Source of the DNA: Chondrosia reniformis
Lineage: Eukaryota; Porifera; Demospongiae; Chondrillida; Chondrillidae
NCBI GenBank assembly: GCA_947172415.1
Contig: OX359190.1
Location: 6,572,001-6,636,000, forward strand
DNA length: 64,000 bases
Direction of reading: 5' to 3'
The position numbers and the translations under genes are program-made. The notes under the pieces were generated by a model that was not told where the DNA came from, did not search any database, and saw nothing but the letters and a program-made list of their open reading frames with translations. Positions within the stretch are counted from its first letter, which is position 1, and each line of letters starts with the position of its first letter. Below, in pieces: positions 1,818 through 44,770 of the stretch.

Positions 1818-3363
1818 TCAGATGCAGTCCATAATCCATGTCAGTTCCGGATCATTAAGAATCACCAACCATTCATAGTGAAAGTCACTGTAGTTGGCAT
1901 AATCAACAGGAAGTTCCAACATGCAATCATAACTGTGTGCTATTGGTCTTCAGGCAAAACCACTCAAGCAGTTAAATTGAAGGGAAAATTCTTTCACTGT
2001 TAGCACACTGCTACCTTTTGTAAAGCGGAGAAATCGTTGCAGTTCATTGCATGACATTTTCCCAATCATAGTGATTAAGTAGCCAGAAACACACTTCTCT
2101 GCTGGATTCATTAAGTCAGGGAGCTTCAAAATATCAAGTACCTTTGCACTAGACACTGTCAGTATCTTGTAAATGATGCCTACACCTTCAACAGACTTAC
2201 AACTCCAAAACCCGGTATGGCAATTGGTTATACCTGTATACATCAGGGTCAACGCTGCTGCAGGTTTACTGCTAAACTCAAACTGGGCAACCTGACGTAA
2301 GCAGCTCTTTATATCAGAGGGGTTTGGCCTTTGGTGGCAGTCAAACCTTGCCAATGTTTGCAGAAGCTTTTCCTGTACCACTGGAGAAAATTCACTTGCA
2401 GATGTCTCTATGGCGTCCTTGAAAAGACTCCTTTCAATATCCGATATATAATCCAAAAATGCATCACAAAGGATTTGATTACCCACGGTCGCACTGTGTC
2501 CACAAAGGATACCAACCAGCAGGGGAGAGCAATTCTGGCAGGTAGGAAGCCACTGACCAGATAACCATGCGAGATGATCCTTCCTAATATTGGTAAAATG
2601 GCAGTGTCCGTCTGAGGGCACAGCATAGGAACAAATAGTGCTGTGACAGTTCTTCTTTTTCTGCCTTGGTGTATTTTGTTAGCTTCTTAGTAATGGCAGA
2701 TGCTTCTCCATAAATATTTCTCTTCAATACAGATTCATGCAGACATGCTAAAGGTCCGACCAATATTTATAAAAAATCAGATGTATTGTATAGCACTTAT
2801 TAATAATTTCTGCGGGATAAATGGTTTTAAAGTATCCATTTGTATTGGTACCATGCAGATCTGAGCTATATACATAGTCACTGCATGTTTAATTTGGGTT
2901 TTGGCCAGATGCATGAAGCTATAAAGACCGTAGCTATATATGGGAAAAGTGATCTTTATTCAATGCATGTCCTTCAGTATTCCAAGCAGACCTATAAATG
3001 TACGTATGAAATATGCCTTTTGCATATATATCATATACTTACATGACTCTCATTGGGATTAATTGCCTTCAAAATTGATTTATCTGGTATGTCAAGTATA
3101 TTAGATACATCTACATATTCTCCTTGCCATTCTTCATTTTTCAGTTGAAGGATTAAGTTCATACCTGGCCTCATGACATCTTTAAACTTAGCTTTAATTG
3201 TTGAAATCAGCTCGTCAGAAGAGAAGCTTACTTCTCGCTTATATTCAAGGAAAGAAACCAGAACGGTCTTAGTTGGCTTCTCATAATCAGATTGCATAGT
3301 AGTATATATGTAGTAATAAAACCTATGAAGGAAAAGTATATATACGTTCAATAAGGCCAACAA
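1818..3363 (-). pseudogene. HECT-like (G2E3-type) ubiquitin-ligase-like gene, degenerate
   Basis: Two blocks on the minus strand. The upstream block (about 3,329-3,043) encodes a beta-rich segment containing NLILQLKNEEWQGEYVDV and ends at a good donor (AGTCAT|GTAAGT). The downstream block (about 2,760-1,818) encodes the C-terminal lobe of a HECT-like domain: it contains LQRFLRFTKGSS, then FNCLSGFA, an in-frame TGA, then RPIAHS...CMLELPVDY...WIMDCI and a final stop at 1,818-1,820. The family pattern is 'LSGxARRPIAHTCxCxLELP', so the TGA sits where an Arg codon (CGA) is expected. A frame change also lies near 2,620-2,640. HECT proteins pass ubiquitin to a substrate from a Cys; a cysteine in the right context (AHSYDC) remains. 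Many animals carry lineage-specific expansions of such genes. It is either a host-gene copy or cargo once spread by an element. Confidence 0.6.
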
Positions 3364-3957
3364 GTTACTAAATGCCGAAACATGTAAATTTATATAATAG
3401 CAACAATTATTACTGATGGCTTAGTTTAAAGTGACTTAATCTACTTTGCTACAAGTAATAATTATACTAATAAGCTTGCTGAAGATGATAACTTAGACTA
3501 ATCCAAAGAACTTACAGGTGATTCACCGGATACAACACACACCGAATTAAGCACACGTCTTGTCGATTTACACGAGGTGGAACAGCTTTAATTAAAATCG
3601 TTTTGTAGCAACTGTTGACGTAAGGCCTGTTTTTATCGTCTTTCCAGTTAGCCAGGCATTTATGTGTAAAACAGAAGATTGGGCATTTATTATGAGGAAC
3701 TACATCTGAGGACGTTATGAGGCACACACGACGTCGTGAGGGACTGAAGCAGTTGTGATAAGGCACTCACAACGTCGTAAGAGGGTGACGATTTTTGTTA
3801 CAAACGGCATGCATTACGTATGGTTCAGAGAGGGCGTCGTGAGTATGCGTCTATTTTTGTTACAAACGGCATCCCAAACGATTCAATCGAATGCCAAGTG
3901 CCTACTGTTTGAAGAAGGTATGATTCTAGATACACCAACACCTGCAACAGGTTTTGT

Positions 3958-16111: not shown

Positions 16112-16920
16112 CATGTATTTAACCTTATATGATCTGTAGAGACTACTACTCTGTATGCAGCAGTTGAGAATTTCAGTGTGGCTAAAGTCTTGTAGCGTTT
16201 AATATACCTGATTGTGATTATTTTGGGAGTCATTTGCATCCGTGTATAAATTTGTAACTTGCACTGTGTAGTACTTGATTGTATTTAAACAAGCATAATA
16301 TATAACACTCCTTATTCCTATATATATATATATATAGAACATCGATACATACACCCATAATGGATAATATGTACAAACATGGATGAATGTGTTCATAAAT
16401 ATACAGTTGAATCTATCGAATATTCACTATACTGAATACAAACTTGGATGAATGTGACTATATGTACCGTATGAGCTTGCACGCACGCATATTTATCCAA
16501 ATCCACCCCTACGTATCCAATTACACTCCTGCATACGTACGTACACACATGGATAGGTAAAAATATTAACAGAAAACAAAAGAAGAGATGACGGAGCTTA
16601 AAGTACCAAAGTTTTACTACGGTCGTCTAAACGAATTTATTTTATTTATTTTACATCAATATATAGCAACAATTCTGGCTTAAACTTAACATGAACGTAT
16701 ACAAATACGCTTTATCTAACCTTCCCTACAACTCGCTTATTCCGTAGCTCCTTCTCGTAGGAGAGCGTCGACTTGTCATAGCCGTTCACGAAAGGATGAT
16801 CTTCTTTAGCAACGAGTCGGTGACGTTTTCGCAACGTCACAAGATTCACTAAATGTTTACGGAGCGACATACGAGAGGTGTTGGTGACGCCCTAGAGAAA
16901 CATCATAATACATCACGAGA
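16112..16920 (+). repeat. Interspersed repeat 'X', copy 1
   Basis: About 700-800 bp that reappears in inverted orientation at 21,560-22,196. Matching landmarks are ttgcatcc.tgtataaat, ccaattaca, the hairpin-bearing agctccttctcgtaggaga, gtcgacttgtcatagccgtt and ttggtgacgc. It continues directly from the palindromic MITE, so both probably belong to one larger non-autonomous element. No protein is readable. Confidence 0.7.
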
Positions 16921-17129
16921 TTGCGCAATCGTAACCTTGAATTCTTCGTTATATCTTGGTTATTTTGCTCATTTAATTAAGCAAAACTTCGCCAGACGTT
17001 TGTCATACACTTGTACCATGATATATGTCGGTTTCACAGTTATCTGACCAATTGAAAATTTTTATTAATATAACACATGGTTTCAATATAAATTTCCCAT
17101 AGGTTTTCTATAGTCCTATGGCATTTTAT

Positions 17130-21559: not shown

Positions 21560-22196
21560 AACTCGAAGCCTGCACATTAATGTGTTCTATTGCGTCACCA
21601 ACAACTGTGTATGTCGCTGGGTACACATTTTAGGGATTCATTTGATGTTGCAAAAACATCACCGCCTTTATGCAAAAAGATCATATTGAGAACGGCTATG
21701 ACAAGTCGACACTCTCCTACGAGAAGGAGCTACCGAATAAGGGAGTTGTAGTGAAGGTTAGATAAAGCATATTTGTTATACGTTTCCATTAATTTTGAGG
21801 CAGAATCCGTTTAGGCGGCTTTATTAAAACTTTGCCAATTTAAACGCTGTCTTCTTTTCTGTTATATGTTTTCTTAACCATGTTTGCACGTACGTATGGA
21901 ATGTAATTGGGCACGTAGGGATGCATTTGAATAAACATTGCATGTGTGCAAATATGTACAAACAGTATAGAATTTCAGTATAATGAAATCGCTTATAGTG
22001 AATGTCTCAGTATAATGTGGTACTTAGCTAGCCTTAGCAAAATCAATATTAGATATAATATATTCTGAACTGACTAAAGGTGATGCAACATATTTTACAT
22101 TTTTATACATGTCCAATTACAATCTAGTATTACATAATTCAAATTATGAATTTATACATGGATGCAAGTGACTTCCAAAATAATCAAGATCAGGTA
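21560..22196 (-). repeat. Interspersed repeat 'X', copy 2, first part
   Basis: This is the inverted counterpart of 16,190-16,920. It runs up to caggta at 22,196, where homology is cut by a Tigger-type MITE. The homologous sequence resumes at 23,713 with tgtatattaaac, exactly where copy 1 continues (minus strand caggta-tattaaacgc). Everything between (22,197-23,712) is therefore inserted material. Confidence 0.7.
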
Positions 22197-22648
22197 CAGT
22201 GGGCCCTAGTTTAACCGACCTTGAGTTAACCGACAACCTTATTTAACCGAAAGAATCGACTGAAACCAATCTAAATCGTATTCCCCGTAATACTTTAGGC
22301 CCTCGTATATCCGACTCGGTTTATCCGTATCCGACACAATTTTCCGATACAGATTTAGGTGTGTGTATATTTTTAACCTTTATTATCCGACAATTGCGGA
22401 GTAGATTAAGAAAGTTTCAGAGAATGGCAGAAAAACGATCGACTGTCAGCGAATTCCTTAAAGAATCGTCCTTGAAGAGGATTCCAACAGCACAAGGAGT
22501 AGACTACCACACCACGAGAAGATGAAATAAGCGTTTTTGACTATTCGTGCTCTATCTATCATTATTTCGCAACCCTTTTTATCTGACACCTGATTTATCC
22601 GACATTTTTGGTTGAAACAAACAGTGTCGGTTAAACCAGGGCCCACTG
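22197..22648. mobile_element. Pogo/Tigger-type MITE (CAGTGGGCCC termini)
   Basis: The ends are cagtgggccctagtttaacc and its complement ggttaaaccagggcccactg. The interior repeats 'accga' phrases (ttgagttaaccgacaacc, atccgaca), as is common in pogo-type ends. A TA precedes the left end; the right flank is ca, so the expected TA duplication has probably mutated. A short plus-strand frame beginning MAEKRSTVSEFLKES may be a coding scrap. Confidence 0.75.
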
Positions 22649-26756: not shown

Positions 26757-29700
26757 TCTCCCTTTCTCCAGTAATTGAGGCAATCAGGAGGGCCAACAAT
26801 AGTTCCTGTACGAGAATGGGTGTTGTGGCTTGGTGTTTCTTGAGTTTCTTGAGCAGCTACTATACAAGTAGGACAAGCTTTGATGTAATCTTCCACCTGC
26901 CGAGATACCCCTGGCCACCAAACTGATGAATTAACACGGAGGCGACATTTTTGAATGCCTTGGTGACCACAATGAATCTTCTCTAAGATCTGTTTTTGCA
27001 TGATTTTGGAATCACCATGCGTCCCCCATAAAGAAGAAGATTGTCAGAAAGGGTAAGGGCATTTCGCTCTGGCCAAAACCTGAGGGTTTCCCCCTTTAAT
27101 CTATCACGACTAGGCCATCCATTTTTGCAAAAGGTAATCAGTTGAGAACAGGTTTCATCTGCATGTTGGGCCTCCTTGTATGTCTCCAATGTAGACTTTT
27201 TTGCTGGTAGGAAAGATGTCATTGACTCCATAAAAGATTCTGTTTTTATGGCTTCTCCATTGTCCTTTTCATCTGCTGCTGACACAGGAGCCCGTGATAG
27301 AGTGTCTGCTGTGTATTTATGTTTTCCAGGTACATGACTAACCGTGTAGGTAAATCTAGCTAGCCTCAGTCTGAAGCGAAGAACTCTAGGTGGCAATGTA
27401 TCCAGGTCCTTCTTATTCAAAATTGGCACCAAGGGCTTGTGGTCAGTCTCCAGTTGGATATGTTTTCCTAAGATGTAGGTGGCAAATTTCTCACAGGCCC
27501 GGGTGACAGCTAAAGCTTCCTTTTCGATCTGTGCATATCGCCTCTCCACTTCCGATAAAGATCTGGAAGCATAAGAAATTGGCTTAAATTCATTCTGCTT
27601 TGATTGCTGCATCAATACAGCTCCAATACCATATGCAGAGGCATCTGCACTTATCTTAGTTGGTGCCTCTGGATTGTAGATAGCTAACACTGTAGGTTTA
27701 ATTAGCTCCTCTTTGAGTCTTTCAAACGCTATTTCTTGAGCAGAATCCCACATCCACATCTTCTTATTACTGAGGATTTCACGGAGTGGTTGACTCAGCT
27801 CCGCCACCTTGGGTGTTAATTTACTCAGCTGGTTGACCATGCCTAAGAATCTCCTCAACTCTGTAGTGGTCTTGGGTTGTTTCATCTGTATTATTGCAGT
27901 GGTCTTGTGAGGGTCTTGAGAGATGCCCTTTTCATCAATCACATGACCAAGGAAGTTAATGTGTTTTTTGTTAAACTCACACTTTTCCTGGTTAAGTGTT
28001 GCTCCAGCAGCTGTAATTTTCTGGAGTACCGCATGTAGCCTTTTATCATGCTCCTCTTGGTTGCCCCCAAAGATCAGTATGTCATCCATGTGGCATAATA
28101 CTCCTTCCTGTCCTTCCAGAATTTGATTCATCTGCTTCTGGAAGTGTTCTGGGGCGCTATTGATCCCAAAAGGTAGCCTGTTGAACTGGTATCTCCCAAA
28201 GGGTGTTATGAACGTAGTAAGATGGCATGAATTTTTGCCTAGGGGTACCTGCCAGAATCCTAAGTTGGCATTAAGCTTGCTGAAGATCGTTGCTCCTGTC
28301 AGTTTAGCCAGGGTGTCTTCAACTTTAGGTAAGGGGTGTACCTCCCTTAAAACACTTTCATTCAGTGGACGGAAATCAACACAGATGCGAATAGCTCCTG
28401 ATTTTTTGGGAACAACTACCATCCCTGCACACCATTCTGTTGGTTCATTGACTTTGGCAATGACTCCAAGTGCTTCCATTCGTTGAAGCTCTGTTTGGAC
28501 CCTTTTTAGCATAGGCAATGGTACATTTCTTGGAGTAGAAAGAGCAAATGGCTTAGCATCTGGTTTCAACTTGATTTCGTATTCATTGGGAAATGTACCT
28601 AGCCCATTGAACAGGACTGGGTATTGCTCTGGAATGGATTTTTCCCCCATATTATCAGCTTGGGCCAGCAATTGCAATGCTTGAATGGCAGGTAAGCCTA
28701 ACAGGTTGTGCTGTAACTGTGCCATTACATATACAGGTTGTTGATAGGACTTACCTTTGTGGGTCAAAGTGCATGTTACCTGACCTAGAACATCTAAGGC
28801 TTTCCTGTCAGGACCACACAAAACTTTGTTGGAGGTATCTAACTGTCCATCTTGAGATGGCGGTCACTTCTGCTCCAGTGTCCATTTTGAAGTGGACTTC
28901 TTTCCCTTGTACTCGTATAGTTTTGGTCCATGCTTTGGTTTGCTTGGATAAGATGGCATCAAGGTATGCAAAATCATTATATTCCTCAGAGTTTTCTTGT
29001 GGCTGCTCACTAGCAGCAGTAACATCTCCAATGGTCTTTGCAGTGAAGCATTGGGATTTGTAGTGGCCTTTCTTTTTGCAAGAATGACAAATTACATCCT
29101 TTGCAGGGCACTGATTGCGAGGATGTGCTCCTTTTCCACATCTAGTACATTTGTTTGCTGCTGTACTTTTTGGCCTCCTCAGAAATCTGTTTTGCTGCTT
29201 CTTGGCTTCCTTGTGGTCCTGTGAGCGCTGAATATATTCAAGGGTTTCTTCTCCTAGAAATCGTTCTTCAGTAACGCTTGCTGTTCGTGTACAGCCTCTC
29301 TTTGGCGAATTATTTTTTTTCGCGCTATCGAGCGTGAGATCTGCGTCCATTTGTAAACGTTCTGACAAGGTTGAGTCACAAATGCCTACGACCAGACGAT
29401 CTCGGATCATTTCTTCCCTAAGGTCTCCGTACGCACAGTCTTCTGCCAGTTGATAGAGGCAGGTGATGAATTGTTCAGCCGATTCTCCGTCAATTTGGAT
29501 CCTCCTATTGAACCGTGCACGTTCAAATATGGTATTTTTATGGACCTTGAAAAATGTGTCAAATTGAGCTATTACTCGACCGTACACCTTCTTATCGTTG
29601 GATGAAATATTCGTAGAGACTAAAACATCTTCGGCATCTTCTCCGAGACAGTAAAGGAAGGCAGAAACTTGACGTTCCTCAGCTTCTTTAGACAAACCCG

Positions 29701-33815: not shown

Positions 33816-34715
33816 ATAGCTGATGGTTTCTTCTGACTCACAACCAAGAAGCTGTGACTGTACTTGCTATTATATGTGTAGCTGATATCAATATTAAACA
33901 ATAATTGGTGGACGATGTCAGACCTCCCATGAAAAAGATGTTTCAACTGGCCATTCTTACTTTCAAATCCAAAAGCAGAATGTGTCCAAAGAGGTCCCTA
34001 CAAACTTATATACTTCGGTAAATGAAGCATCAAGTGGGGATTGGCAGTGCAACTTGACTCCCCATATATTTCAGGCAGAAGAATGCAAAAATCAATTATC
34101 ATCTACTCTGCTGCATCCAATTGAGTATGACTGATGTCATCACTAAGCATGACGTGCATTGCACACACAAGAGAGCATAATGGTGCCAAAAAAGAGATGG
34201 TATGAAGGGGACAAGTAGAGGTAGGGAATAATTAAAAGAGAGGCCAATTGTTAAGTTCTGAGACTTTACAATATCGTATATGTTTAATTATAGATCGTGG
34301 TGGACGTTGTTTCAGTTGTTCTGAATCAATTTTTCAGTTTCCTTGATGTGTCCTTGTGTTGCACTCTCTTCCACCCTCTATTCGTTTCACTAGGAATTCG
34401 AAGTGATAAATAAAGGTGTATAAAATTCATTCAGATTTGAACTGAAATCATTTCACACCCATTGTTAATCGTCGTTGTCACCTTACGTGTTTATTTCTAG
34501 ATCGCATAGGAATGCCTCACAACTTCGGTAAAAAAGTGATAAAACTTCGGTGGAAAAGCGATCGAACTTCGGCTGAACTGCAATCTAACTGCTGTCAAAC
34601 TTGGCTTTAACTTCAAGACAACTTCGAAAGGAAACTAATTTTCCACTCGTACCGTATTTTCTACGAAACAGATAAAAGGCTAAGTTATGCACTGGATTTC
34701 TAGGTTGCAAACAAG

Positions 34716-34940
34716 TTGCAAATTCTAAACGTCACAACTGAAGTTGATGCGCATAACCTTGGTGAAAGACTTTCAAATTGTGACAAGAGCGGGGTGTGCA
34801 CATTTATGGTATCCAGTACAGTACTCGCCCGAAGAGGAGCACAGTGGGTCCATGAGACCACTGGAGGATGTAGCAGTGCGATTACCACCATCCCCATTGG
34901 AGGATCGGCATCAGGAAGACACTTGCCTCCTTTTGTTGTA
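34716..34940 (+). pseudogene. Pogo-like (DDE_1) transposase, left part, split by a 6.6-kb element
   Basis: The plus strand reads NCDKSGVCTFMVSSTVLARR then GAQWVHETTGGC, and SGRHLPPFVV directly before the element terminus. This is the 'CDxSG...LARRG...SATGxxLPPFVVYKG' core of pogo-like transposases (first catalytic Asp in CDKSG). One base-level frame change lies within. It stops at 34,940 exactly where the terminal repeat of the large element begins; the missing half resumes at 41,556 (YKG...). Confidence 0.75.
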
Positions 34941-35195
34941 CGGTACGTACGGAAATTACGTTTCCACGAAGTTCAAAGCGAACTTCGACTGAACTTCGAC
35001 CGTAATTCGACAAATCTTCGGGTGAACTTCGTGCGTACTTCGAACTGACTACGTTTAAGTTCAATTCGACTTCGTACCAACTTCGATAAATCTTCGGACG
35101 AACTTCGTGCGTACTTCGAATTGACTACGTTTAAGTTCGATTTGACTTCGTGCAAACTTCGATTAATCTTCGGACGAACTTCAGCGAAACTTCTC
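34941..35195. repeat. Left terminal repeat with 76-bp tandem duplication
   Basis: After the outer 25 bp the sequence becomes an array of cgaacttcg/cgtacttcg units. Two 76-bp copies are clear (35,025-35,100 and 35,101-35,176), both running aacttcgtgcgtacttcgaa to aatcttcggacg. The orientation of most units is opposite to those in the right repeat, as expected for inverted ends. Confidence 0.8.
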
Positions 35196-35596
35196 AACTC
35201 CTTCTTGGCAAACAAGCGCGCGCGGGTAAACTCTTCATATAAAAACGTAGCCCTTTCCTACAGATTTATTGATAGGCTATAGACTTTGTTGAAAGAAAAT
35301 AATAATGACTACTTGTAGATTGCTAGAGAAGGAAGGAAAGGAAAATAATGAAGGTAAAATTGTCAATTAAGGTAGTAGGTATGGTTAAAGTGATCAAATC
35401 AAACTTGCACGATTTTTGGTGCAGATGTTTGGTTATGGGTCTCATTCACGTTCACTAAGTTTTATGCCGGTCACGACTAGTTTGCAAGAATTATAGGAGA
35501 AACAAAAAACGTTTAATCTGTGCGAAATTTCAAGTGTAATAACTGATTAATTGATGGGCCATATTCTAATTGCTCTGTTGGCAAAGGAAGAGGCAT

Positions 35597-36200
35597 GGCT
35601 GTGTCGACGAGGTTGTCTTTAGAGGACGCTATTGTCGTCTTGGAAGCAAAATTTGTAGACAATGGGTATGCGACCGCTCTGCACCGTCTGTACGCTAGTG
35701 GTTACCGTGCTTCTTTGTAGTTTTGAGAACGCACCGCCGGGCCTTGTTGCCTTACTGAAGACGACTCAAAGCGACGCAATCGGGCGGTCCAAGCTGTATC
35801 GACGCTTGTACGGTATTCTTTGGGTGAGTTGTGCTCGGAATTTGCTGAAATAGCTAAAAGACGCGATCCTGTCATCTTCTAGCACGGTGGGAAGGTCGGC
35901 GCTGGCTACTTTGAAGGAAACCAGCCTACCTACGTGTATCCATCGGCTCTGAAAGATGTAGTAAGGGCGTGCTTTCCAGAAGAACTGGATACAGTGCCCA
36001 AGCCAGACCCTGAAGGCAATACGGTGTGTATGCATACTTGTCTTGGTCATATCCAATACACGTATTCGGATGTATAAGAAGTGTATCAATATAAAAACAT
36101 TTACTCTTATAATGATGCAGGTGTACACAGTCACCTACCAAGATCTATACCAGGCCAAATGGCCTGCTATTAAAGGTGCACCAGTTCGCGGGCAGGCGAC
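35597..36200 (+). pseudogene. Broken cargo gene of unknown function in the large element
   Basis: From ATG at 35,597 the plus strand reads MAVSTRLSLEDAIVVLEAKF then YATALHRLYASGYRASL, two close stops, and LTEDDSKRRNRAVQAVSTLV with RYSLGELCSEFAEIAKRRD, one more stop, then FEGNQPTYVYPSALKDVVRA and FPEELDTVPKPDPEGNT up to GTGTGT. A possible second exon after ...atgatgcag gives VYTVTYQDLYQAKWPAIKGA. The composition is GC-richer than the surroundings and protein-like, but I do not recognise it. Stops in the first exon indicate decay. Confidence 0.4.
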
Positions 36201-36361
36201 TAGTAGTTGACATTAGCACTATATAGATTGCATTGCGACAATACACACAGACATGCATGGCTATAGTAATTATATGATAATTATAAAAATAATTGAGGAG
36301 TGTTGTGTTATCATGAAACTGACAGTGAAATGTGGTAATACTAATGCATAATCAATCAAGA

Positions 36362-37415
36362 TTATTTATTTAGTGGGCAACCATGAAACGACACACGGGA
36401 ATGTGATGTGGAGCCACACTTGCATGGTTTCTGCTCCTTTCCTTTCCTCGAAGGCTGTGTTGATGACTGTTCAATGCTTCCCCAAAACCAGTAGATCTCC
36501 ATGGCCATCACTGTCTGCACTATGTTCACCACCAATAAGTGCATATACAGTAGTGTTGCTGTCCACAGGGTCTGCTTCCTCAGTTTGCTCAAGCTCTTCC
36601 TCTTGGTTATCATAACTGTGCACAATCTGCTGTCGCTTTGTCCACTGCTTACGTTCTTGCTGCTCCGCTACACGTGCAGTCTTCATCTGGATTCTGTACT
36701 TTTTCACCTCATCAGTCTTCTTCTTCACAAGAGCCTTTGATCTTTGTTCGATGTCAGCTTTCCAAATATCTGCCATGCCATCAAGAATAGGCAGTCCCAT
36801 CTGGCTGAACAAAGTGACATATGGTGAAATATCACTCTGGTCAACACAGCTCATTATGAGCCCCCAGTTCGTCATGGTAATGTAAGAGAGCCTATGTAGT
36901 GCAAGACTCTTAGAACGGAAACGAGGAAGAATGTTGAAGGCTGCCTCACAAAGATTTGAATGCCCTCTACCCATTACGGTGTGGATAACACTCTCTGCAT
37001 TCAAAGCCCTCCGCTCACACTCAACCACATATCCAAGGGAATGCAGTTCACATGAGAGGACAAACTTCCTTTCGTATGGCTTGCCCACACATTGTAGATC
37101 GTCTACATCATTGCATCCACCACATGAACAGACGACTGAGGGGTGGAAAGAACACTGGCCTCCATCCCAGCTGTGTATACCACGGGCATGATACTTCCCA
37201 AGTTCTCTCATGTGCTGGGCATAGATGTTGGGATCGTTTTCAGCCTGGATGCAAACAAGAAAGTGACTGATTTGGGCATTTCTAATGAATCCTTCTGTTA
37301 TGCACCCACATCCTGCTTTGTGTTTCCCCCTCTCACAGCAGCAGGTCACAGTTGCAACAGTTGGATGTGCCTGTTTGTATCTTCGTGAAAGATGTGTGTT
37401 TTCGTCTCTTCCTGT
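36362..37415 (-). pseudogene. Cys-rich protein of an unnamed transposon-linked family, nearly complete
   Basis: A 292-codon frame (37,349-36,471) with upstream coding to about 37,400 (LSRRYKQAHPTVATVTCCC). Landmarks: CCCERGKHKAGCGC, GKYHARGIHSWDGGQCSFHP, VCSCGGCNDVDDLQC, KPYERKFVLSCELHSLGY, GRGHSNLCEAAFNILPRFRS, LHRLSYITMTNWGLI, then a charged helix. One frame change near the end leads to KPCKCGSTSHSRVSFHGCPL, a terminal zinc-knuckle-like motif. I recall similar unnamed proteins with an 'HARDIHEWDGG' motif expanded in lophotrochozoan and amphioxus genomes, always multi-copy; function unknown. The start is unclear because a stop lies just upstream and an upstream exon is possible. Confidence 0.55.
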
Positions 37416-37640
37416 CCTTCAATTTCGGCATCGCGTATAGTGATACCCTTACAACTAATGCTGTGCGCTATTACCTAACAACTACTGATATGCGCAGGTA
37501 TTCCCAAACATTTAGATGCTAGCGGGAGGTTAGCTGTTGAAGCTTGAGATACGCCTGCTAGATCACTGGACTGCAACGATCAGTTGTTCCGCGCTTAGCA
37601 GGAATGTAAACATATAAGATGTGTTAGTTGGCGACAGGTT

Positions 37641-37713
37641 TGAGGTGTGAAACGAGGTGTGAAACGAGGTGTGAAACCACAGCTCTTCAAGCCACCAATT
37701 AAGGTGGCTTGAA
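37641..37713. repeat. Triple 12-bp repeat next to a perfect 12-bp hairpin
   Basis: gaggtgtgaaac occurs three times in a row (37,641-37,677). It is followed by cttcaagccacc, a 6-nt loop, and ggtggcttgaag. The site lies between the divergent minus-strand Cys-rich gene and the plus-strand BEN gene, so it may be part of their shared upstream region. Confidence 0.7.
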
Positions 37714-38393
37714 GAACTTTCTTGCTTTGGCGTATTGTGGGCGATCGCTGTGGTCGCAAAGCTTAAAAGGTACCTGAATGCGTGTTATAGAAGCGTCTCC
37801 TAGTGTTGGGTTAGTTAGCACGCATTAAATCCTCTAAGAAGGCCTCCTCTGGTATTGTAGTGTCTGAGATCAAGGTGTTGCTGAGCTATCTAGTCTGTAA
37901 CGTTACTAACAAAACAAACGCGGCTTGGTTCATCGGAATGCACACGGAAATGCGCTAAAAATGATGGGAGGCCACTTAAAAAATCGCATGCGCAGACAAG
38001 TTATCATAACTTTCGCAACTTTTATATAAAAAGTAAATAACTTGGCCATGAAAGAGAAAATGGAGGTGGCCTCCCATAGGATTGTGCACACACGTTTGTA
38101 GATTATATATGCCAAGTTTGGTTTTTCCCAGCCATTAATGGCATAACTAGATAGAGTTTCCCTGAAGGTACTTGAGTTTTTCTGAGGAGATATTTTTTGA
38201 TTTTAAATTACATTATTGCAATAACGGAAGTGTCAATCAATTATTTATTTACACCAAATTATAAGAAATTTACCTGACAATCACTCCTGCAATAGTCAGG
38301 CTGGTTTGCTGTATGGTTTGTGAGTTACATACCCAGAAGTAATGCACCCTAAAGGAAGCTTTTAGCCATACCTACTACCTTAATGACAAAGAA

Positions 38394-39542
38394 ATGTTAA
38401 TTCGCAAGAGGAAATGTTTCATTAAATTTTCTAATGGCCTATGCCCCATAGAGACTAAAACACATTACTTGCTTTTTTGGGAGGAGGAAGTGACAACATC
38501 CATAGTCGATCAGAAATCTATAATTGAGCCAGAAAGTCTGAAAATAAACACAATGATTAAAGTTAAATGGGGAAAAAAAGTGTTGACAGCCAAACTTGTT
38601 GGGAAAGGTTCAAGAACAGAAATGGAAAAGAAAGAAGCTACCTTTTGCAAAGGAAGTGATGTTAAGCCAGAAGCACTTAAGGAGGATAAAACAGAGACTC
38701 CTCCATTGAAAAAGAAAAAGACTGAATGCCAAAAAAAATTAACCAAGCGTAATAAGGACTTCAAAGTTCTTAGAATAACGTCACCGCAGAAGTCACAGCA
38801 TAGGCCTGAAGAAACTTGTATTCTGGGGGAAGAAGATGCCAGAGATAATGTAACTTTGGATACTAAGCTGCCTACATGTACTACTTGTGCAACAGACATA
38901 CCCATACTTAAGTTAACTTTAGAAAACACAGCAAGCTTCTTCTCGGAACAAATGGTCATTCTTCAAGTTGCTAATGACACTCAGGCAAACGTCATTAGCC
39001 AACTGAAAGACCAGATATTGCAACAAGAAGCTAGGATTTGCCAAATTGAGGAGGGCTTAAAAGTCCTAAAAAATAAAGAAGTAGAAGGTTCTATGTCCAA
39101 ATATGTCACAACAGTAAGACCAAGTCCTCAAGTACCTCAAGATAAAATCATGGACACATCACAAACAATTGCAAAGCCATGTTTGGACATAGAACCCAAA
39201 TTACTGAAGTCACCAGAAGAAGTTATAGAAGATAACATCGGCCTCCTTAACACCTCAGCTAAAGCTGGACGTTTAGCTGTGAGACTTGCCAAAGACGCTT
39301 ACTTTGGTACAGACATGATGAAGACAAACACTATCTCATCTCTGCCAGCACCACAAAAAAAGAAAATTAAAGAAAAGGTATTCAAGGCATATAACTTTAC
39401 CAACCCATTGGAATTTGAGCCAATTTGGCAGAAATGTGTTATTGCCATAGGAAAGGCCTGCCAAGCCCTGAGAGCTGAAAAATATAATATACAAACTGAA
39501 AACTGCTGCATAACAACTATATACATACAATACAACTTATAG
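38394..39542 (+). CDS. BEN-domain protein, intact 382-codon frame
   Basis: A single uninterrupted frame from ATG to TAG. Residues 1-75 look like a small beta-rich module (THYLLFWEEEVTTSIVDQKS, MIKVKWGKKVLTAKLVGKG), as at the start of several BEN-domain proteins. A Lys/Glu-rich linker follows (~76-150), then a predicted coiled coil (~185-235; SQLKDQILQQEARICQIEEG). Residues ~283-362 are the BEN domain: LNTSAKAGRLAVRLAKDAYF, GTDMMKTNTISSLP and FEPIWQKCVIAIGKACQALR. BEN domains bind DNA and recruit chromatin repressors. The gene lies inside the large TIR element and is the only undamaged frame there. Start chosen because it precedes the conserved module and no earlier in-frame ATG was seen. No introns needed. 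Confidence 0.8.
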   Translation: MLIRKRKCFIKFSNGLCPIETKTHYLLFWEEEVTTSIVDQKSIIEPESLKINTMIKVKWGKKVLTAKLVGKGSRTEMEKKEATFCKGSDVKPEALKEDKTETPPLKKKKTECQKKLTKRNKDFKVLRITSPQKSQHRPEETCILGEEDARDNVTLDTKLPTCTTCATDIPILKLTLENTASFFSEQMVILQVANDTQANVISQLKDQILQQEARICQIEEGLKVLKNKEVEGSMSKYVTTVRPSPQVPQDKIMDTSQTIAKPCLDIEPKLLKSPEEVIEDNIGLLNTSAKAGRLAVRLAKDAYFGTDMMKTNTISSLPAPQKKKIKEKVFKAYNFTNPLEFEPIWQKCVIAIGKACQALRAEKYNIQTENCCITTIYIQYNL

Positions 39543-40127
39543 GACCAGAACAACAATCTTGTATTATTTTATAGTCTATATAGTATTTATAATGTTGTAT
39601 TTAGGCTGTATTAATATTCAAAAACTCTCAAAATGGAATGGGCATTTACCTTGTGATTTTGCTAGTTGACTATGTGAGCCTTCAATGTAGCAAGGTAACT
39701 TAGGCAGCCTTATCTTTGTTATGAAGGTCAAAAGGACATTCCTGGTTCCCCATTCCCTTGGTTTTAAGGGTTCCTACCCTAAATCCTCCTCATTCATATC
39801 ACTTGTTAGGCAAAATATAGGCAGAAGTCTATATAAACTAGCACCTCTAACATAAATATAATAAATTAATTGTACACCACATCAAAGGATGTTTTAGGGT
39901 GACTTGCTTATAAAGGGTGTCTTGGTACCTAGGCAACATAGATAAGGCTTGTAAAACAAACAATAATGTTTACTATAGGCGTATCACCTAAATAATAATG
40001 GCTATGTCAAGGATATGGGCTGAGCCTTGTTTATTCCTGAAAGTTCCATTTACTTTATTTTTTAATTCTTGTATTTATGTACATTAAAAGTATGAAAAAA
40101 CTACATAGTACTCTTATAGTAAAAACA

Positions 40128-41123
40128 CTAATACCCTGTTGGTCCACCATCACATTGTATAATTTTTGGTAATACTTTTTCTAAGTGATTTATATAACGA
40201 CTACATTTGGCTATATCTACAGAGTCCCAAAAATCTTGAATGCCTTTTAACAATTCTTCTTTGGTGTGTGGCTTTGCAACTCTTCTGATGTATTCCTTTA
40301 GCTCATGCCACAGATTTTCAATTGGATTGGCATCTGGGGATTCTGGTGGTGTTGGCCACTAGTTAACTTGCTGATCTACATAAAACTCTCTTGCATGGCG
40401 TGATGTGTGCTTTGGATCATTATCCTGTATAAAGCGGTGGCCTTCCGGAAAAAGTTCCTTGATCATTGGCAGTAAGGTCTGCTCTAATATAGTAGTGTAG
40501 GAAGGAGCATCCATACAGCCTTCAAATATACAAATTCTTGATGCCCCTCTCTTGCTAATAGCAGCCCATACGTGAACCTTAATGGGATGCTTTGGACGAG
40601 GTTTGCATCTGGGTTTCACACCTCTTTTGGTGCAACAGAATCTCCTATGATTCTCTAACTGTACGGTTGTTTCATCAGAAAAGATGCAGTCACTAAAGTC
40701 ATCACCTAAGGTTTCCTTAGCCCACTGCAACCGCTTGACCTTATTGGCATCTCTAATCATTTGGCAGTATGCGCTTCCCCGATGAGTCCATCCAAGTTCA
40801 CTTCTAGCCTTAAGTATAGTAGTTCGGCCTAAGCTGACTTGATTAGCTGACAACATCTGTTGTAATTCCTTTAATGTTGTTTCATCATCTGCCTCCATCC
40901 TTTCATCTATCAGCCTCTTAACATGAGCTGTGAGCTTTGTTTTCCTACCCCTCCCGGCATCACAGCTTATTGTTCCAATGGCTTGATATTTGCTAAGAAA
41001 TTAATGGATGCCCTGTCTACTGGCCTAGATATTTTCATCTGCAAGAAGTTGCGCAATCGCTGGTGCCTTATAGCCCTTCTTGGCTAGAGAAATGATCCTT
41101 AGTCTTGTATACGCACTGAACAT
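40128..41123 (-). pseudogene. IS630/Tc1-type transposase, near full length with three in-frame stops
   Basis: The frame runs from ATG at 41,123 (MFSAYTRLRIISLAKKGYKA) to the final stop after CDGGPTGY, 332 codons including the stop, the normal length. N-terminal helix-turn-helix region to ~residue 75, then RTTILKARSELGWTHRGSAY. The catalytic residues are present: DCIFSDETTVQLE (first Asp), HRFIQDNDPKHTSRHA (second Asp) and DANPIENLWHELK (Glu). In-frame stops occur twice in the N-terminal part (after LLADENI and RQGIH) and once at a likely Trp codon (TGG to TAG) after DQQVN. No frameshift was seen, so the copy is quite young. It starts about 100 bp inside the right repeat of the large element and is its best candidate mobilising enzyme. 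Confidence 0.85.
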
Positions 41124-41221
41124 AATTTTGTCTCTTATAAACTAAAGCGAAAAATAAGCTACTTTAGGTTTAAATACAGTTTAAAACCGCCTTTCTATGT
41201 GCGTATGTTAATCGTAACTTA

Positions 41222-41553
41222 AACGAGAAGCCTCGAAAAAACTTCGAAAGAATTGTGAAGAAACTTCGCTCATACTACAGTCACGATCGGTAGGGACTTC
41301 GGCGGTACTTCGTTCGAACATCGGCTGTACTTCGTTCAAACTTCGGCCGTATTTCGTTCGAACTTCGGCGGTACTTCGTCTGAACTTCGGCCGTACTTCG
41401 CCTGAACCTCGACGGTATTTTCTTCGAATTTCGCCCGTACTACGTACGAATTTCGGATGTTTATCGTAGGAAGTTCGCGTGTAGTTCGTACGAAGTTCGC
41501 CTAAACTTCTCGAAGTTGGACTTCGAATGTAAACGTAATTTCCGTACGTACCG
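41222..41553. repeat. Right terminal repeat with ~20-bp acttcg units
   Basis: Consecutive units such as cttcggcggtacttcgttcg, acttcggccgtatttcgttc and acttcggcggtacttcgtct recur about every 20 bp from 41,295 to 41,420, then decay before the outer terminus at 41,520-41,553. The motif spacing is near two helical turns, which could suit cooperative binding by the transposase. Confidence 0.8.
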
Positions 41554-41555
41554 TT

Positions 41556-42440
41556 TATAAGGGAAGCATTTGTTTTCTTCGTGGAAAAAGAGGCCCTGAG
41601 GGTGCCACATATTCTCTTAGTGAGAGTGGGAGGATGGAGAAGGCTAATTTCCTTAGCTGGTTCCAGAAGGTTTCAAACCGTCTGTTCAACATCTTCTGGA
41701 GTCAGGGCCTGTTGTACTCATGTTAGATGGTCATCATTCACATATGAGCATCGAGCTGCTGGAACAAGCCAGATCTAAAAATTATCACCTTTTGCACATA
41801 CATCCCACATTCTTCAACCCATGGATGTTGGGGTTTTTGGACCAATGAAAAAAGCCTAGAAGAAGGTGCTCAAAGAACACAAAATTAGCACCAGGGCTTC
41901 CAATGTTACAAAGGATGCCTTTCTATCACTCCATAACCAACTGTGGTTAAGCTCTATCCAACCAGAGCACATTATAGCTGGTTTCCAAGGAAGTGGCTTC
42001 TAGCCCCTCAAAATGTCAGCTATTCCCCAGTACAAGATAGCACCATCAGTAGCAATGTTTCATGGTGGAGGTAAATCACCATCAACTACGGTTGAAACCC
42101 CTTTACGTACCGAGCTGAGGGATTTTTTTGCCAAGCGCCTACTGCTAACAGAAGTATCTAAAGCTAAAAGAGAAAGAATTTAGGTGCACATAGAAGGAGA
42201 AGCAATGACCAATGCTGAAGTTATAGATATACTAAGGAGAAAGAAGCAAGATCGGAAAAGGCAAGAGAAAGAAGAAGGCTCAGACATATAAACTCCCGTC
42301 ACCTAATGCAAGTGATAAAGACACAACTCACTGTTTTAAGTGTGGTGGTGAATATTTAGACTTTGATATGGATAATTTTATCGTTGGTATCACTTGAAAT
42401 GCGCTGGATTCAAAACCATGCCTAAATCAAGTGACCAAAT
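41556..42440 (+). pseudogene. Pogo-like (DDE_1) transposase, right part
   Basis: The reading resumes at the element border with YKGKH-like sequence across a shifted base, then GPEGATYSLSESG, ANFLSWFQKV, PVVLMLDGHHSHMSIELLEQ (second catalytic Asp), MKKAWKKVLKEHKIS-like traces, and HIEGEAMTNAEVIDILRRKK near the end. A final Cys motif follows (CFKCGGEYLD ... WYHLKCAGFKTMPKSS), like the C-terminal zinc finger of this group. Several stops and shifts. With 34,716-34,940 this is one gene split by the 6.6-kb insertion. Confidence 0.75.
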
Positions 42441-42764
42441 TTCGCTGCTACGTATGCTATCATTAATTTTTGAGCTCACAATTTGCTGTTTTAAATGAGT
42501 TTTGATTCCAACAATTGCAAAAAATCTTGATTTCTGTGTTCAACTGCATTACAAAGATCATTTAGCAGAATTTCATCACGTGACCCAAATTAGGCAATAG
42601 TGCTGCTCTTGACCTTACTTGCTTTCTCGGTTGTTATCTGCTGATAGCAAGCTTACTTTGGAACGATCGAATGCGCGCTGTAAAGACCAAGCACTAAAGT
42701 ATGTTCTGATGTGTTGAAACTTTTATTTAGATACATCTCGATGGGTAGATATCGACTAAAAGAT

Positions 42765-44770
42765 AAAAAAGCGGCAGGTCCAGATGGTCTAGGCCCTAGT
42801 ACACTTAAAAACATTAATACTCTTAAATATCTACATAAACTATTTAACCTCTGTTTTAAGAAATCATTGATACCAGATGAATGGTACTATAGCTCACTGA
42901 CACCCATATACAAGGGTATTGGAAATAAATATGACACAAATAATTACAGAGGAATAGCAGTACAATCTTGTATTACTAAGTGCTATTGTAAAATCCTGAA
43001 TAATCGTCTTACAGCATACTTGGATTCTAATGATCTACTATGTGAAGAGCAAGGTGGATTTAGGAAAAATAGAAGCTGTCAAGACCAAATATTTTCTCTT
43101 TTTAGCATTATTGAAAATCGAAAGTCAAGGAAAAAAGATACATTTGCTTGTTTTGTTGACTTTAAAAAAACCTTTGACTCTATACCAAGAGAGAAATTAT
43201 GGTCAAAATTAAACAATATAGGTATCAATGGCCTTTTTCTCAGTTCTATCCGTAGACTTTATTCTAACACACAATATGCAGTATGTACTGAAAATGGTAC
43301 CACTGATTGGTTCCAAGTTAATACAGGTGTTAAGCAAGGATGTGTTTTGTCCCCCACTCTATTTAACATTTATATCAATGATCTACCGGTTTCCCTCAGG
43401 GAAGTAAATGCCCCAATTAGCTTTGGTAATATAAAGATCGATGCTCTACTATATGCAGATGATTTAGTTATCATAGCAGACTCTCCTAGAATCCTACAGA
43501 ATAAGTTAAATTCTCTTACCTCTTATTGTAACTTATGGAATTTGTCTATAAACCCTGATAAAACTAAAACAGTGCATTTCAGAAACAATAGAAAACCACT
43601 AGACTCAAAAATATTTAAATGCTGTAATGCTTATATTACTTACACTGATAAATACAAGTACCTAGGTGTCATATTTACTGAACACCTTAGTCTGAAGGCT
43701 ACAATTGAAGCAACCTCCATCTCAGCCAGTAGAGCTGCCAACCTTTTAATCTGTAAATCTAGGACCTCAGGTAATTTTAACTACAATGTATACAGTAAAA
43801 TATATGAAAGTCTAATCTTACCAGTCATTAATTATAGCTCCTTTTTATGGGGATTTAAGTCCTATGATCAGGTTAACAAAATACAGTTTAAACTAATTAG
43901 AAACTTCTTAGGACTTAATCGGAATGTACCTCTTGACGCTTTAATAGGGGAGATGGGTTGGAAACCTATATCATGTCTGACAAAAATCACATGTATTAAA
44001 TTTTGGAAAAGACTACACACCCTACATAATAATCGTATCACAAAAGCAGTTTTTATTGAAGCATGTAGATTGGCCGAGCAAGGCACCCATAATTGGGTTA
44101 GCTCTGTAAATAATTTGTTTTCTAGCTACTGGCCCCAATACTCCCCCCCTGCAACACTTGATCTTAACTCTATTGTACATCTTACCACCCAAAGTATCTG
44201 TGTTAATTATGATTTACTCTGGTATCAAAATATTAATAGAATCCCTTATAACTCCAGTTCTGGTGGTAGATTAAATCTTTACCGTAAGATAAAATTTGCT
44301 CCCAAGGTAGATAGTTATATAATGAGATGTGACAAAGGCAGGAGACGAGTCATCGCTGGTCTACGTACTGGTTGCCTTCCCCTTGCAGTCGAAGTTGGTC
44401 GTTACACCTCCATCCCATTTGATCAGAGGACATGTCAGGTCTGTGCTGGGGGTGAGGTGGAGGACCAAGCACATTTTTTGCTGGATTGTTGTAAACTTAA
44501 TATTATAAGAAAAGATTTATTTACCTACTGTACCAATCTTAATCCCAATTTTACATGTATGTCTCCCTCCACTAAATTACAATATCTTTTAACCTCAGAC
44601 AATACAAAAGTCATTAATTTTATTTATAGAATGTATAATCTTAGACAATCCCTTTTATTCCCATCATAATTTATTGTAAACACCCTCACCAATCTTTTTT
44701 GTGACTAATAAGCCAAACCTGGCTGGTCAGCTTGTATACTGATAGTCACTTTAATAATAATAATAATATA
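42765..44770 (+). mobile_element. 5'-truncated LINE with an uninterrupted RT frame and taa tail
   Basis: The open frame (42,711-44,669, 652 codons) has no breaks, so the insertion is recent. It begins inside the reverse transcriptase (KKAAGPDGLGPSTLKN), then SLTPIYKGIGNKYDTNNYRG, EEQGGFRKNRSCQDQIFSL, CFVDFKKTFDSIPREKLW, GVKQGCVLSPTLFNIYINDL and the catalytic LLYADDLVI. The C-terminus has a zinc-knuckle-like CQVC...DQAHFLLDCC. The endonuclease and everything upstream are missing. The 3' untranslated region holds a hairpin (gtgacta...tagtcac) and ends in taataataataat, as in I-like clades. The first ~18 codons (before KKAAG) are probably flanking DNA. A target duplication was not recognised. 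Confidence 0.85.

What the first reader, a model, noticed from the sequence alone, without database searches (positions are those of the whole stretch)
34941..41553. A 6.6-kb cargo-bearing TIR element caught inside a pogo-like transposase gene
Seen: exact complementary ends (cggtacgtacgg...), arrays of acttcg repeats inside both ends, and host reading interrupted between PPFVV and YKG. Known: IS630/Tc1 elements target TA and are usually 1-3 kb with one gene. Inference: this one grew by taking up a BEN-domain gene, a Cys-rich gene and another gene, and its transposase sits next to the right end. Large cargo versions of Tc1-like elements are rarely described, so this may be a new element type.
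Basis: partly seen in the sequence, partly recalled or inferred. Interest (0 to 1): 0.8.

Follow-up and report, generated by a model that had tools for sequence, protein, structure and literature searches.

The report
Sponge Tc1 transposons carrying BEN gene
The 6.6-kb insertion is a decayed, interrupted copy of a two-gene "jumping gene" family in a sponge, in which a Tc1-type transposase travels with a DNA-binding BEN-domain gene; most BEN domains found in that genome lie beside such transposases, which may bear on where animal BEN regulators came from.

Summary
In detail: a 6,613-bp element (34941-41553) with matching ends sits at a TA inside a pogo-like gene, and four other loci match the joined flanks across the junction. 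It is not a Tc1 element that picked up three cargo genes. Two elements are nested. The outer one is a two-gene Tc1-type transposon: a BEN-like accessory gene (38343-39542, +) facing a stop-broken DD34E transposase (40128-41123, -). Inside it lies a separate ~3.0-kb TTAA-flanked element holding the Cys-rich fragment. The BEN gene belongs to the family: 80 of 95 BEN-domain loci found lie within 6 kb of a related transposase, 67 of them convergent (random placement: mean 1.6, maximum 7); of 20 Pfam BEN matches over the cut-off, 18 do. One copy has both frames open and a 99.6% identical sibling elsewhere, implying recent mobility. The ends are CpG-rich in a CpG-poor genome, with 11-bp arrays in this subfamily. 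Most likely the BEN protein binds the ends, as transposition helper or anti-silencing factor like plant VANC; that step is inference. Host, by assembly size: the sponge Chondrosia reniformis. New variant of a known kind.

The parts
34939..34940 (.). TA target-site duplication, left copy
   Evidence: the closest empty site (C6) has TA at this point
41554..41555 (.). right copy of the target dinucleotide, now TT
   Evidence: 17 of 18 related termini are preceded by TA
34941..34966 (+). left terminal inverted repeat (CGGTACGTACGGAAATTACGTTT...)
   Evidence: I1, 96%; 18 related termini in the genome, reversed control 0
34967..35208 (+). left subterminal array of ACTTCG-type units, 11-bp period; CpG o/e 2.66 over the first 230 bp of the element
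35367..35370 (.). TTAA flank of the nested element, left
35371..38379 (.). nested element with ends GGTAGTAGGTATGG, flanked by TTAA; its two outer parts are about 98% identical to a 1.9-kb copy on C12 (L044); ~0.82-kb relatives elsewhere
   Evidence: (I2)
36325..37426 (-). segment absent from the C12 copy of the nested element; holds the Cys-rich ORF (36471-37418), which matches the C-terminal part of 611-625-aa frames elsewhere; no Pfam family
38380..38383 (.). TTAA flank of the nested element, right
38343..39542 (+). accessory gene of the outer element: open frame of 399 codons (stop to stop) with an N-terminal domain shared with other copies, a variable middle and a C-terminal BEN-like domain (about 39195-39497)
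40128..41123 (-). Tc1-type DD34E transposase of the outer element, three in-frame stops
   Evidence: (DDE_3)
41240..41515 (-). right subterminal array, 11-bp period; CpG o/e 2.41 over the last 230 bp of the element
41528..41553 (-). right terminal inverted repeat
34800..34938 (+). host pogo-like gene, part left of the insertion
41556..41819 (+). host pogo-like gene, part right of the insertion (DDE_1 match at E 0.079, below Pfam cut-off)
34521..34656 (-). solo right end of a second family member (array plus terminus) just left of the host fragment
   Evidence: (I6); no partner end found near it

Best explanation
The finding is a dead copy of a two-gene Tc1/mariner-type transposon family in a sponge (Chondrosia reniformis by assembly size), with an unrelated TTAA-flanked element nested inside it. 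SHOWN BY SEQUENCE: terminal inverted repeats, TA target, a DD34E transposase gene and a BEN-type accessory gene facing each other, and CpG-rich subterminal stretches (regular motif arrays in this subfamily). The same pair of genes recurs across divergent subfamilies. INFERRED MECHANISM: the transposase cuts and pastes the element at TA. The accessory protein binds the subterminal stretches through its C-terminal BEN domain. It thereby helps assemble the ends for transposition and/or keeps the terminal promoters unmethylated and active, like plant VANC proteins. Short array-only derivatives (MITEs) are moved in trans. Each end also serves as the promoter of the gene that starts next to it.
For: Unit: L010 (2.75 kb; TA on both sides; matches to both genes, transposase 55-78% and accessory 26-49% identical to the window, both frames broken). 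L056 (3.47 kb; TA on both sides; open frames of 449 and 348 codons) and its sibling L054, 99.6% identical over 3,274 bp with a different right flank. L057 (open frames of 515 and 350 codons between matching ends). Parts: the L057 BEN passes Pfam (29.7 vs cut-off 23.2) and matches BEND3 structures (1.3e-6); its transposase matches Sleeping Beauty (4.4e-21); the window family's domain profile aligns with the L057 BEN (hhalign probability 91). Linkage: 80 of 95 BEN-domain loci within 6 kb of a related transposase, 67 convergent; random mean 1.62, maximum 7 in 500 trials. Pfam BEN search: 18 of 20 over cut-off. Ends: CpG o/e of the terminal 230 bp is 1.49-2.66 in the 10 ends of five elements and 1.40 in the left end of L055; interiors 0.34-0.50. 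The five most CpG-rich of 555 overlapping tiles in the window are the two arrays. Three MITEs of 175-216 bp with TA flanks are mostly array.
Against: No binding, expression or methylation data. The window's own accessory protein gives no Pfam hit; of 6 family domains scanned one hit BEN weakly (0.0082); the PDB profile search found no BEN chain; the single-sequence fold was of low confidence and its search uninformative. A clear 11-bp period is seen only in the window and L055; the ends of L010, L056 and L057 show none, and their top 6-mers do not exceed shuffles (those of the L053 right end and L055 left end do). 13 of 51 long transposase loci have no BEN match within 6 kb, and 15 of 95 BEN loci no transposase. 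10 BEN loci are divergent from their nearest transposase. Of 14 loci fetched around other termini only 2 (L009, L010) match both genes; 12 match none of the window proteins. The L054 accessory frame is cut by one stop. The transposase itself may bind the arrays.
Confidence: 0.62

Rival explanations
1. Two-gene transposon as above, but the arrays are binding sites of the transposase; the BEN protein has another role (chromatin targeting, nuclear import, repression of the host response). Can be partly true together with the promoter-only view.
For: Tc1-type transposases bind their own terminal repeats (recalled, e.g. Sleeping Beauty). Three array-bearing MITEs keep the arrays and little else, as expected of a transposase site.
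Against: Tc1-type ends usually hold one or two sites (recalled), not about a dozen per end. The subterminal sequences differ between subfamilies; the accessory protein diverges faster than the transposase (22% against 42% between L056 and L057).
Confidence: 0.25
2. One reading: one Tc1-like element that captured three host genes as cargo.
For: Three non-transposase ORFs of some length do lie between the ends.
Against: The BEN gene is shared by tens of loci across divergent subfamilies. The Cys-rich ORF lies in a TTAA-bounded nested element with relatives elsewhere.
Confidence: 0.03
3. The BEN gene is a separate mobile element or host gene that only happens to be near Tc1 copies through shared insertion hot spots.
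For: 15 of 95 BEN-domain loci have no transposase match within 6 kb. Nested insertions occur in this window.
Against: Convergent order in 67 of 80 pairs with mostly short spacing, and both genes lying between one pair of TA-flanked inverted repeats in L010 and L056.
Confidence: 0.03
4. The CpG-rich ends are simply promoters, unmethylated as ordinary CpG islands; no special binding by the BEN protein.
For: In the convergent layout each gene starts next to one end.
Against: Three MITEs of 175-216 bp with no genes have CpG o/e 1.77-2.10 while their flanks have 0.25-0.32 (flanks of 1 kb, but only about 250 bases for L022); youth could also explain this.
Confidence: 0.2

Closest known systems
Tc1 group of Tc1/mariner (IS630-Tc1-mariner), e.g. 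Sleeping Beauty
   Same: DD34E transposase with DDE_3 domain, HTH N-terminus, TIRs, TA target
   Different: Members usually carry one ORF (PMC8533490, passage seen); here a second, BEN-type gene and CpG-rich subterminal stretches; copies of 2.75 and 3.47 kb (L010, L056)
Ciliate TBE elements (Oxytricha), three-gene Tc1/mariner elements
   Same: Multi-gene Tc1/mariner element; accessory ORFs of unknown function (PMC4724952, passages seen)
   Different: TBE accessories are a 22-kD ORF and a 57-kD zinc finger/kinase ORF, not BEN; TIRs carry telomeric repeats; protist germline
VANDAL elements with VANC (Arabidopsis)
   Same: Accessory protein that evolves with short motifs arrayed in tandem in the element's non-coding parts (PMC5735166, passages seen): the model for the proposed mechanism
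   Different: Different transposon and accessory protein (no relation sought here); the function is shown there, only inferred here
BEN-domain proteins (BEND3, BANP)
   Same: BEN domain by Pfam and PDB sequence match of L057
   Different: Those are host proteins (recalled); here the gene lies inside transposons

Membership tests
Tc1/mariner (Tc1, DD34E) | DDE_3 catalytic domain | tested here: met
   (window 7.1e-10, L056 6.9e-24, L053 1.5e-21, L057 3.9e-17)
Tc1/mariner (Tc1, DD34E) | 34 residues between second D and E | tested here: met
   Counted by eye in L056, L057 and the window; the catalytic D taken by analogy with Sleeping Beauty (which D it is, recalled)
Tc1/mariner (Tc1, DD34E) | TA target-site duplication | tested here: met
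   17 of 18 termini preceded by TA; closest empty site with one TA; in the window the right copy is TT
Tc1/mariner (Tc1, DD34E) | Terminal inverted repeats | tested here: met
Tc1/mariner (Tc1, DD34E) | One ORF only (usual, not strictly required) | tested here: not met
   Two genes in L010, L056, L057
BEN-domain family (PF10523) | Pfam gathering score in the family | tested here: met
   L057 29.7 vs 23.2; 20 of 24 listed loci over the cut-off in the genome
BEN-domain family (PF10523) | Pfam gathering score for the window's own protein | tested here: not met
   No hit; related to the L057 BEN by profile comparison, so called BEN-like
VANC-type anti-silencing | Protein binds arrays and removes methylation | not testable with these tools
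   Only array and CpG signatures seen
TTAA elements (piggyBac, Kolobok; recalled) for the nested element | TTAA duplication and inverted ends | tested here: met
   Window and 7 of 9 fetched relatives (L044-L047, L050-L052) have TTAA at both ends; L048 shows an altered left end and L049 only one end
TTAA elements (piggyBac, Kolobok; recalled) for the nested element | Family transposase | tested here: inconclusive
   The Cys-rich ORF and three longer relatives scanned have no Pfam family above cut-off; no such pair of ends was found around those relatives (L040-L043)

The most novel reading that the evidence does not exclude
A large animal transposon lineage has long carried a BEN-domain DNA-binding protein matched to CpG-rich motifs in its own ends, an animal counterpart of plant VANC anti-silencing. 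Animal BEN regulators (BEND3, BANP, insensitive, NACC1) would descend from, or have been spread by, such transposon accessory genes.
Probability: 0.27. Interest if true: 0.88.

Novelty: new variant of a known kind. Interest (0 to 1): 0.7.

Why it matters
Tc1/mariner elements usually carry one gene (PMC8533490, passage seen). A lineage that keeps a second, DNA-binding gene across divergent subfamilies suggests that the gene does something for the element. It gives BEN domains, whose origin is unsettled to my knowledge, a mobile carrier: in this genome 18 of the 20 Pfam BEN matches over the cut-off lie within 6 kb of such a transposase. It also makes a concrete question testable: do animal transposons encode sequence-specific anti-silencing factors? 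The copies with open frames (L056, L057) make expression and binding tests straightforward.

Tried and rejected
Rejected: three-gene cargo capture. Rejected: two separate small elements at the two ends, because the empty sites join there and L010 has the same pair of ends. Rejected: insertion without duplication; the C6 empty site has TA and the window TA/TT, though with TT on one side it is less than certain.

Led nowhere: Pfam on the accessory proteins of L010, L053, L055 and L056 (hits below cut-off or none, none to BEN); PDB profile search with A2 (3 chains up to E 10, none BEN); structure of the window BEN-like domain from one sequence (mean pLDDT 61.8) and its Foldseek search (no match at E <= 0.001); scans of viral and GTDB contigs with the L056 transposase (no relative). 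A first frame chosen for the window transposase was off by one, repeated. The first co-location count (43 of 69 convergent) mixed N-terminal-only rows and was replaced. Search tables were capped: one search lists 150 rows of 153 matches and scored 150 of 257 candidates; one search scored 119 of 319; 84 of 267; counts are therefore lower bounds. Rows dropped: one search kept 30 of 53, one search kept 44 of 56, one search kept the 20 of 24 over the cut-off, one search kept 32 of 89 (N-terminal-only and low-complexity rows dropped). Two contig lengths (C10, C14) in its random control were approximate. In one search the L055 'right' figure (CpG o/e 1.02) is the edge of the fetched stretch, not the element's end, and was dropped; the L057 right end lacks its last bases.
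Full report
WHERE. The window is G000:C2:6572001-6636000 of a 117,379,552-base genome in 15 contigs; C1 is 10,409,357 bases long. These figures match the Chondrosia reniformis assembly odChoReni1.1: 117.37 Mb, 14 scaffolds plus mitochondrion, longest 10.41 Mb (PMC12181767, abstract and passages seen). The species is an inference from size.

THE INSERTION IS REAL. The ends form a 27-nt, 96% inverted repeat, 6.6 kb apart. With three mismatches allowed the terminus occurs 18 times in the genome and its reversed control never. 17 of the 18 termini are preceded by TA, and the bases further out differ apart from two termini of a duplicated stretch (L015); the exception is the window's right end. The flanks joined at one TA match four other loci across the junction, at 92, 76, 74 and 73%. 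Three of them were fetched and aligned; the closest has TA at the junction, the other two read TG there. The host gene is pogo-like: its right part matches DDE_1 only below the Pfam cut-off.

IT IS TWO ELEMENTS, NOT ONE. Element positions 427-1384 and 2487-3448 match one continuous 1.9-kb stretch on C12 at 98%. In the window this is 35371-38379, bounded by GGTAGTAGGTATGG ends and TTAA. Seven of nine fetched relatives (L044-L052) have the same ends with TTAA on both sides and different surroundings. The window copy has 1.1 kb more than the C12 copy, holding the Cys-rich ORF. That ORF matches the C-terminal part of longer proteins elsewhere. Three of those proteins have no Pfam family above cut-off, and no such pair of ends was found around L040-L043. 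It is not cargo of the outer element. Without the nested element the outer element is about 3.6 kb.

THE OUTER ELEMENT IS A TWO-GENE TRANSPOSON. Of 14 loci fetched around other termini, two (L009, L010) match both genes and twelve match none of the window proteins; three of the latter are MITEs with both ends. L010 is 2.75 kb between matching ends with TA on both sides; both of its genes are broken into shorter frames. L053-L057 were then fetched because the match tables promised both genes. L056 (3.47 kb) has open frames for both (449 and 348 codons) and TA on both sides. L054 is 99.6% identical over 3,274 bp, with one stop in the accessory frame; its right flank differs at once outside the terminus, so the subfamily moved recently; its other end was not fetched. 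L057 has open frames of 515 and 350 codons between matching ends, its right end reaching the edge of the fetched stretch. The transposases carry DDE_3; that of L057 matches Sleeping Beauty (4.4e-21); the spacing is DD34E (counted by eye). In the window the transposase has three in-frame stops, so this copy is dead; the accessory frame is still open.

THE SECOND GENE IS A BEN GENE. The L057 protein passes the Pfam BEN cut-off and matches BEND3 and, weakly, BANP chains by sequence (1.3e-6 and about 0.05). The window's own protein does not pass by itself, but its family profile aligns with the L057 BEN over 83 columns, probability 91, and shares W, I, C and L positions. An N-terminal domain is shared by the window, L053 and L055 proteins; in L056 a similar stretch lies upstream, apparently on another exon (read by eye). 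The accessory protein diverges faster than the transposase: L056 against L057, 22% in the BEN region and 42% in the transposase.

THE PARTNERSHIP IS GENERAL. From four searches 95 BEN-domain loci were merged, and 138 transposase loci. Of the 95, 80 have a transposase within 6 kb: 67 convergent, 10 divergent, 3 same strand. Random placement gives 1.62 on average and at most 7 in 500 trials. Three of the four BEN queries were accessory proteins of the family (window, L056, L057), which may favour paired loci; the Pfam profile is free of that bias: 20 matches over the cut-off, of which 18 are paired (the unpaired ones are C5:2080408 and C8:1902697). From the other side, 38 of 51 transposase loci of 900 bases or more have a BEN within 6 kb and 13 do not; fast-evolving partners could be missed. 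The searches were capped, so the counts are lower bounds.

THE ENDS. The window's arrays have an 11-bp period; L055 shows 11 and 22; L010, L056 and L057 show none. Enriched 6-mers exceed shuffles in the window, the L053 right end and the L055 left end, not in the others. CpG observed/expected of the terminal 230 bp is 1.49-2.66 in the ten ends of five elements (window, L010, L053, L056, L057), and 1.40 in the one known end of L055. Interiors are 0.34-0.50 and the 64-kb window 0.50. In the window the five most CpG-rich of 555 overlapping tiles are these two arrays. Three MITEs of 175-216 bp with TA flanks are mostly array, with CpG o/e 1.77-2.10 against 0.25-0.32 in the flanks.

HOW IT LIKELY WORKS. 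Shown: anatomy, recurrence, recent mobility of one subfamily. Established for the family (recalled): a DD34E transposase cuts at the TIRs and inserts at TA. Inferred: the BEN protein binds the subterminal stretches. Two roles fit. One is a helper in forming the transposition complex, which would explain why MITEs keep arrays. The other is an anti-silencing factor that keeps the ends unmethylated, which would explain high CpG in a CpG-poor genome. In Arabidopsis, VANC proteins bind short motifs arrayed in tandem in VANDAL elements and evolve with them (PMC5735166, passages seen); the arrays and the fast-evolving partner here are alike in kind.

WHAT IS KNOWN. Members of this superfamily usually carry one ORF (PMC8533490, passage seen). 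Ciliate TBE elements are three-gene Tc1/mariner elements (PMC4724952, passages seen), so multi-gene members exist, but I found none with a BEN gene. In the held library, papers with 'BEN domain' together with 'mariner' and 'transposon' (3), 'transposase' (12) or 'transposable elements' and 'DNA-binding' (7) show none that, by title and start of abstract, describes this pairing (listings seen). A survey of transposon-derived animal transcription factors does not use the word BEN in its main text (PMC10027918, word search). Further searches listed nothing on it by title. Repbase, preprints and most subscription papers were not searched.

VERDICT. A real and informative element, misread as cargo capture. 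New variant of a known kind.

Noticed in passing
34521-34656: A solo right end of another member of the same family (array plus terminus) lies just left of the host pogo fragment; no left partner within 5 mismatches nearby.
   Followed up: partly
20480: A solo terminus like that of the L010 subfamily (TATGGTACGCATGGAAATTAAGTTTACATTCG, TA on its outer side).
   Followed up: no
16446-17020 and 22196-22540: Other CpG-rich tiles of the window (o/e 1.42-1.83); could be ends of other elements or promoters.
   Followed up: no
26983-28863 (-): Open frame of a retrotransposon polyprotein (RVT_1 and RNase H domains).
   Followed up: no
42684-44669 (+): Long open frame of a reverse transcriptase (RVT_1, 661 codons), perhaps a LINE, right of the host fragment.
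   Followed up: no
C7:908367-1135954, C7:2359015-2606295, C2:2653329-2731582 (genome): Groups of matches to the N-terminal domain alone of the L057 accessory protein: perhaps a host family or another mobile family sharing that domain.
   Followed up: no
L040-L043: Relatives of the Cys-rich ORF: frames of 611-625 aa in L041-L043; the two of these that were scanned (L041, L042) have no Pfam family above cut-off. Perhaps an undescribed transposase type.
   Followed up: partly
C1, C3, C6, C10, C12 (genome): A group of transposases about 38-48% identical to the queries has its BEN match on the divergent side (mostly 0.9-1.6 kb away), suggesting a second layout of the two-gene unit.
   Followed up: partly
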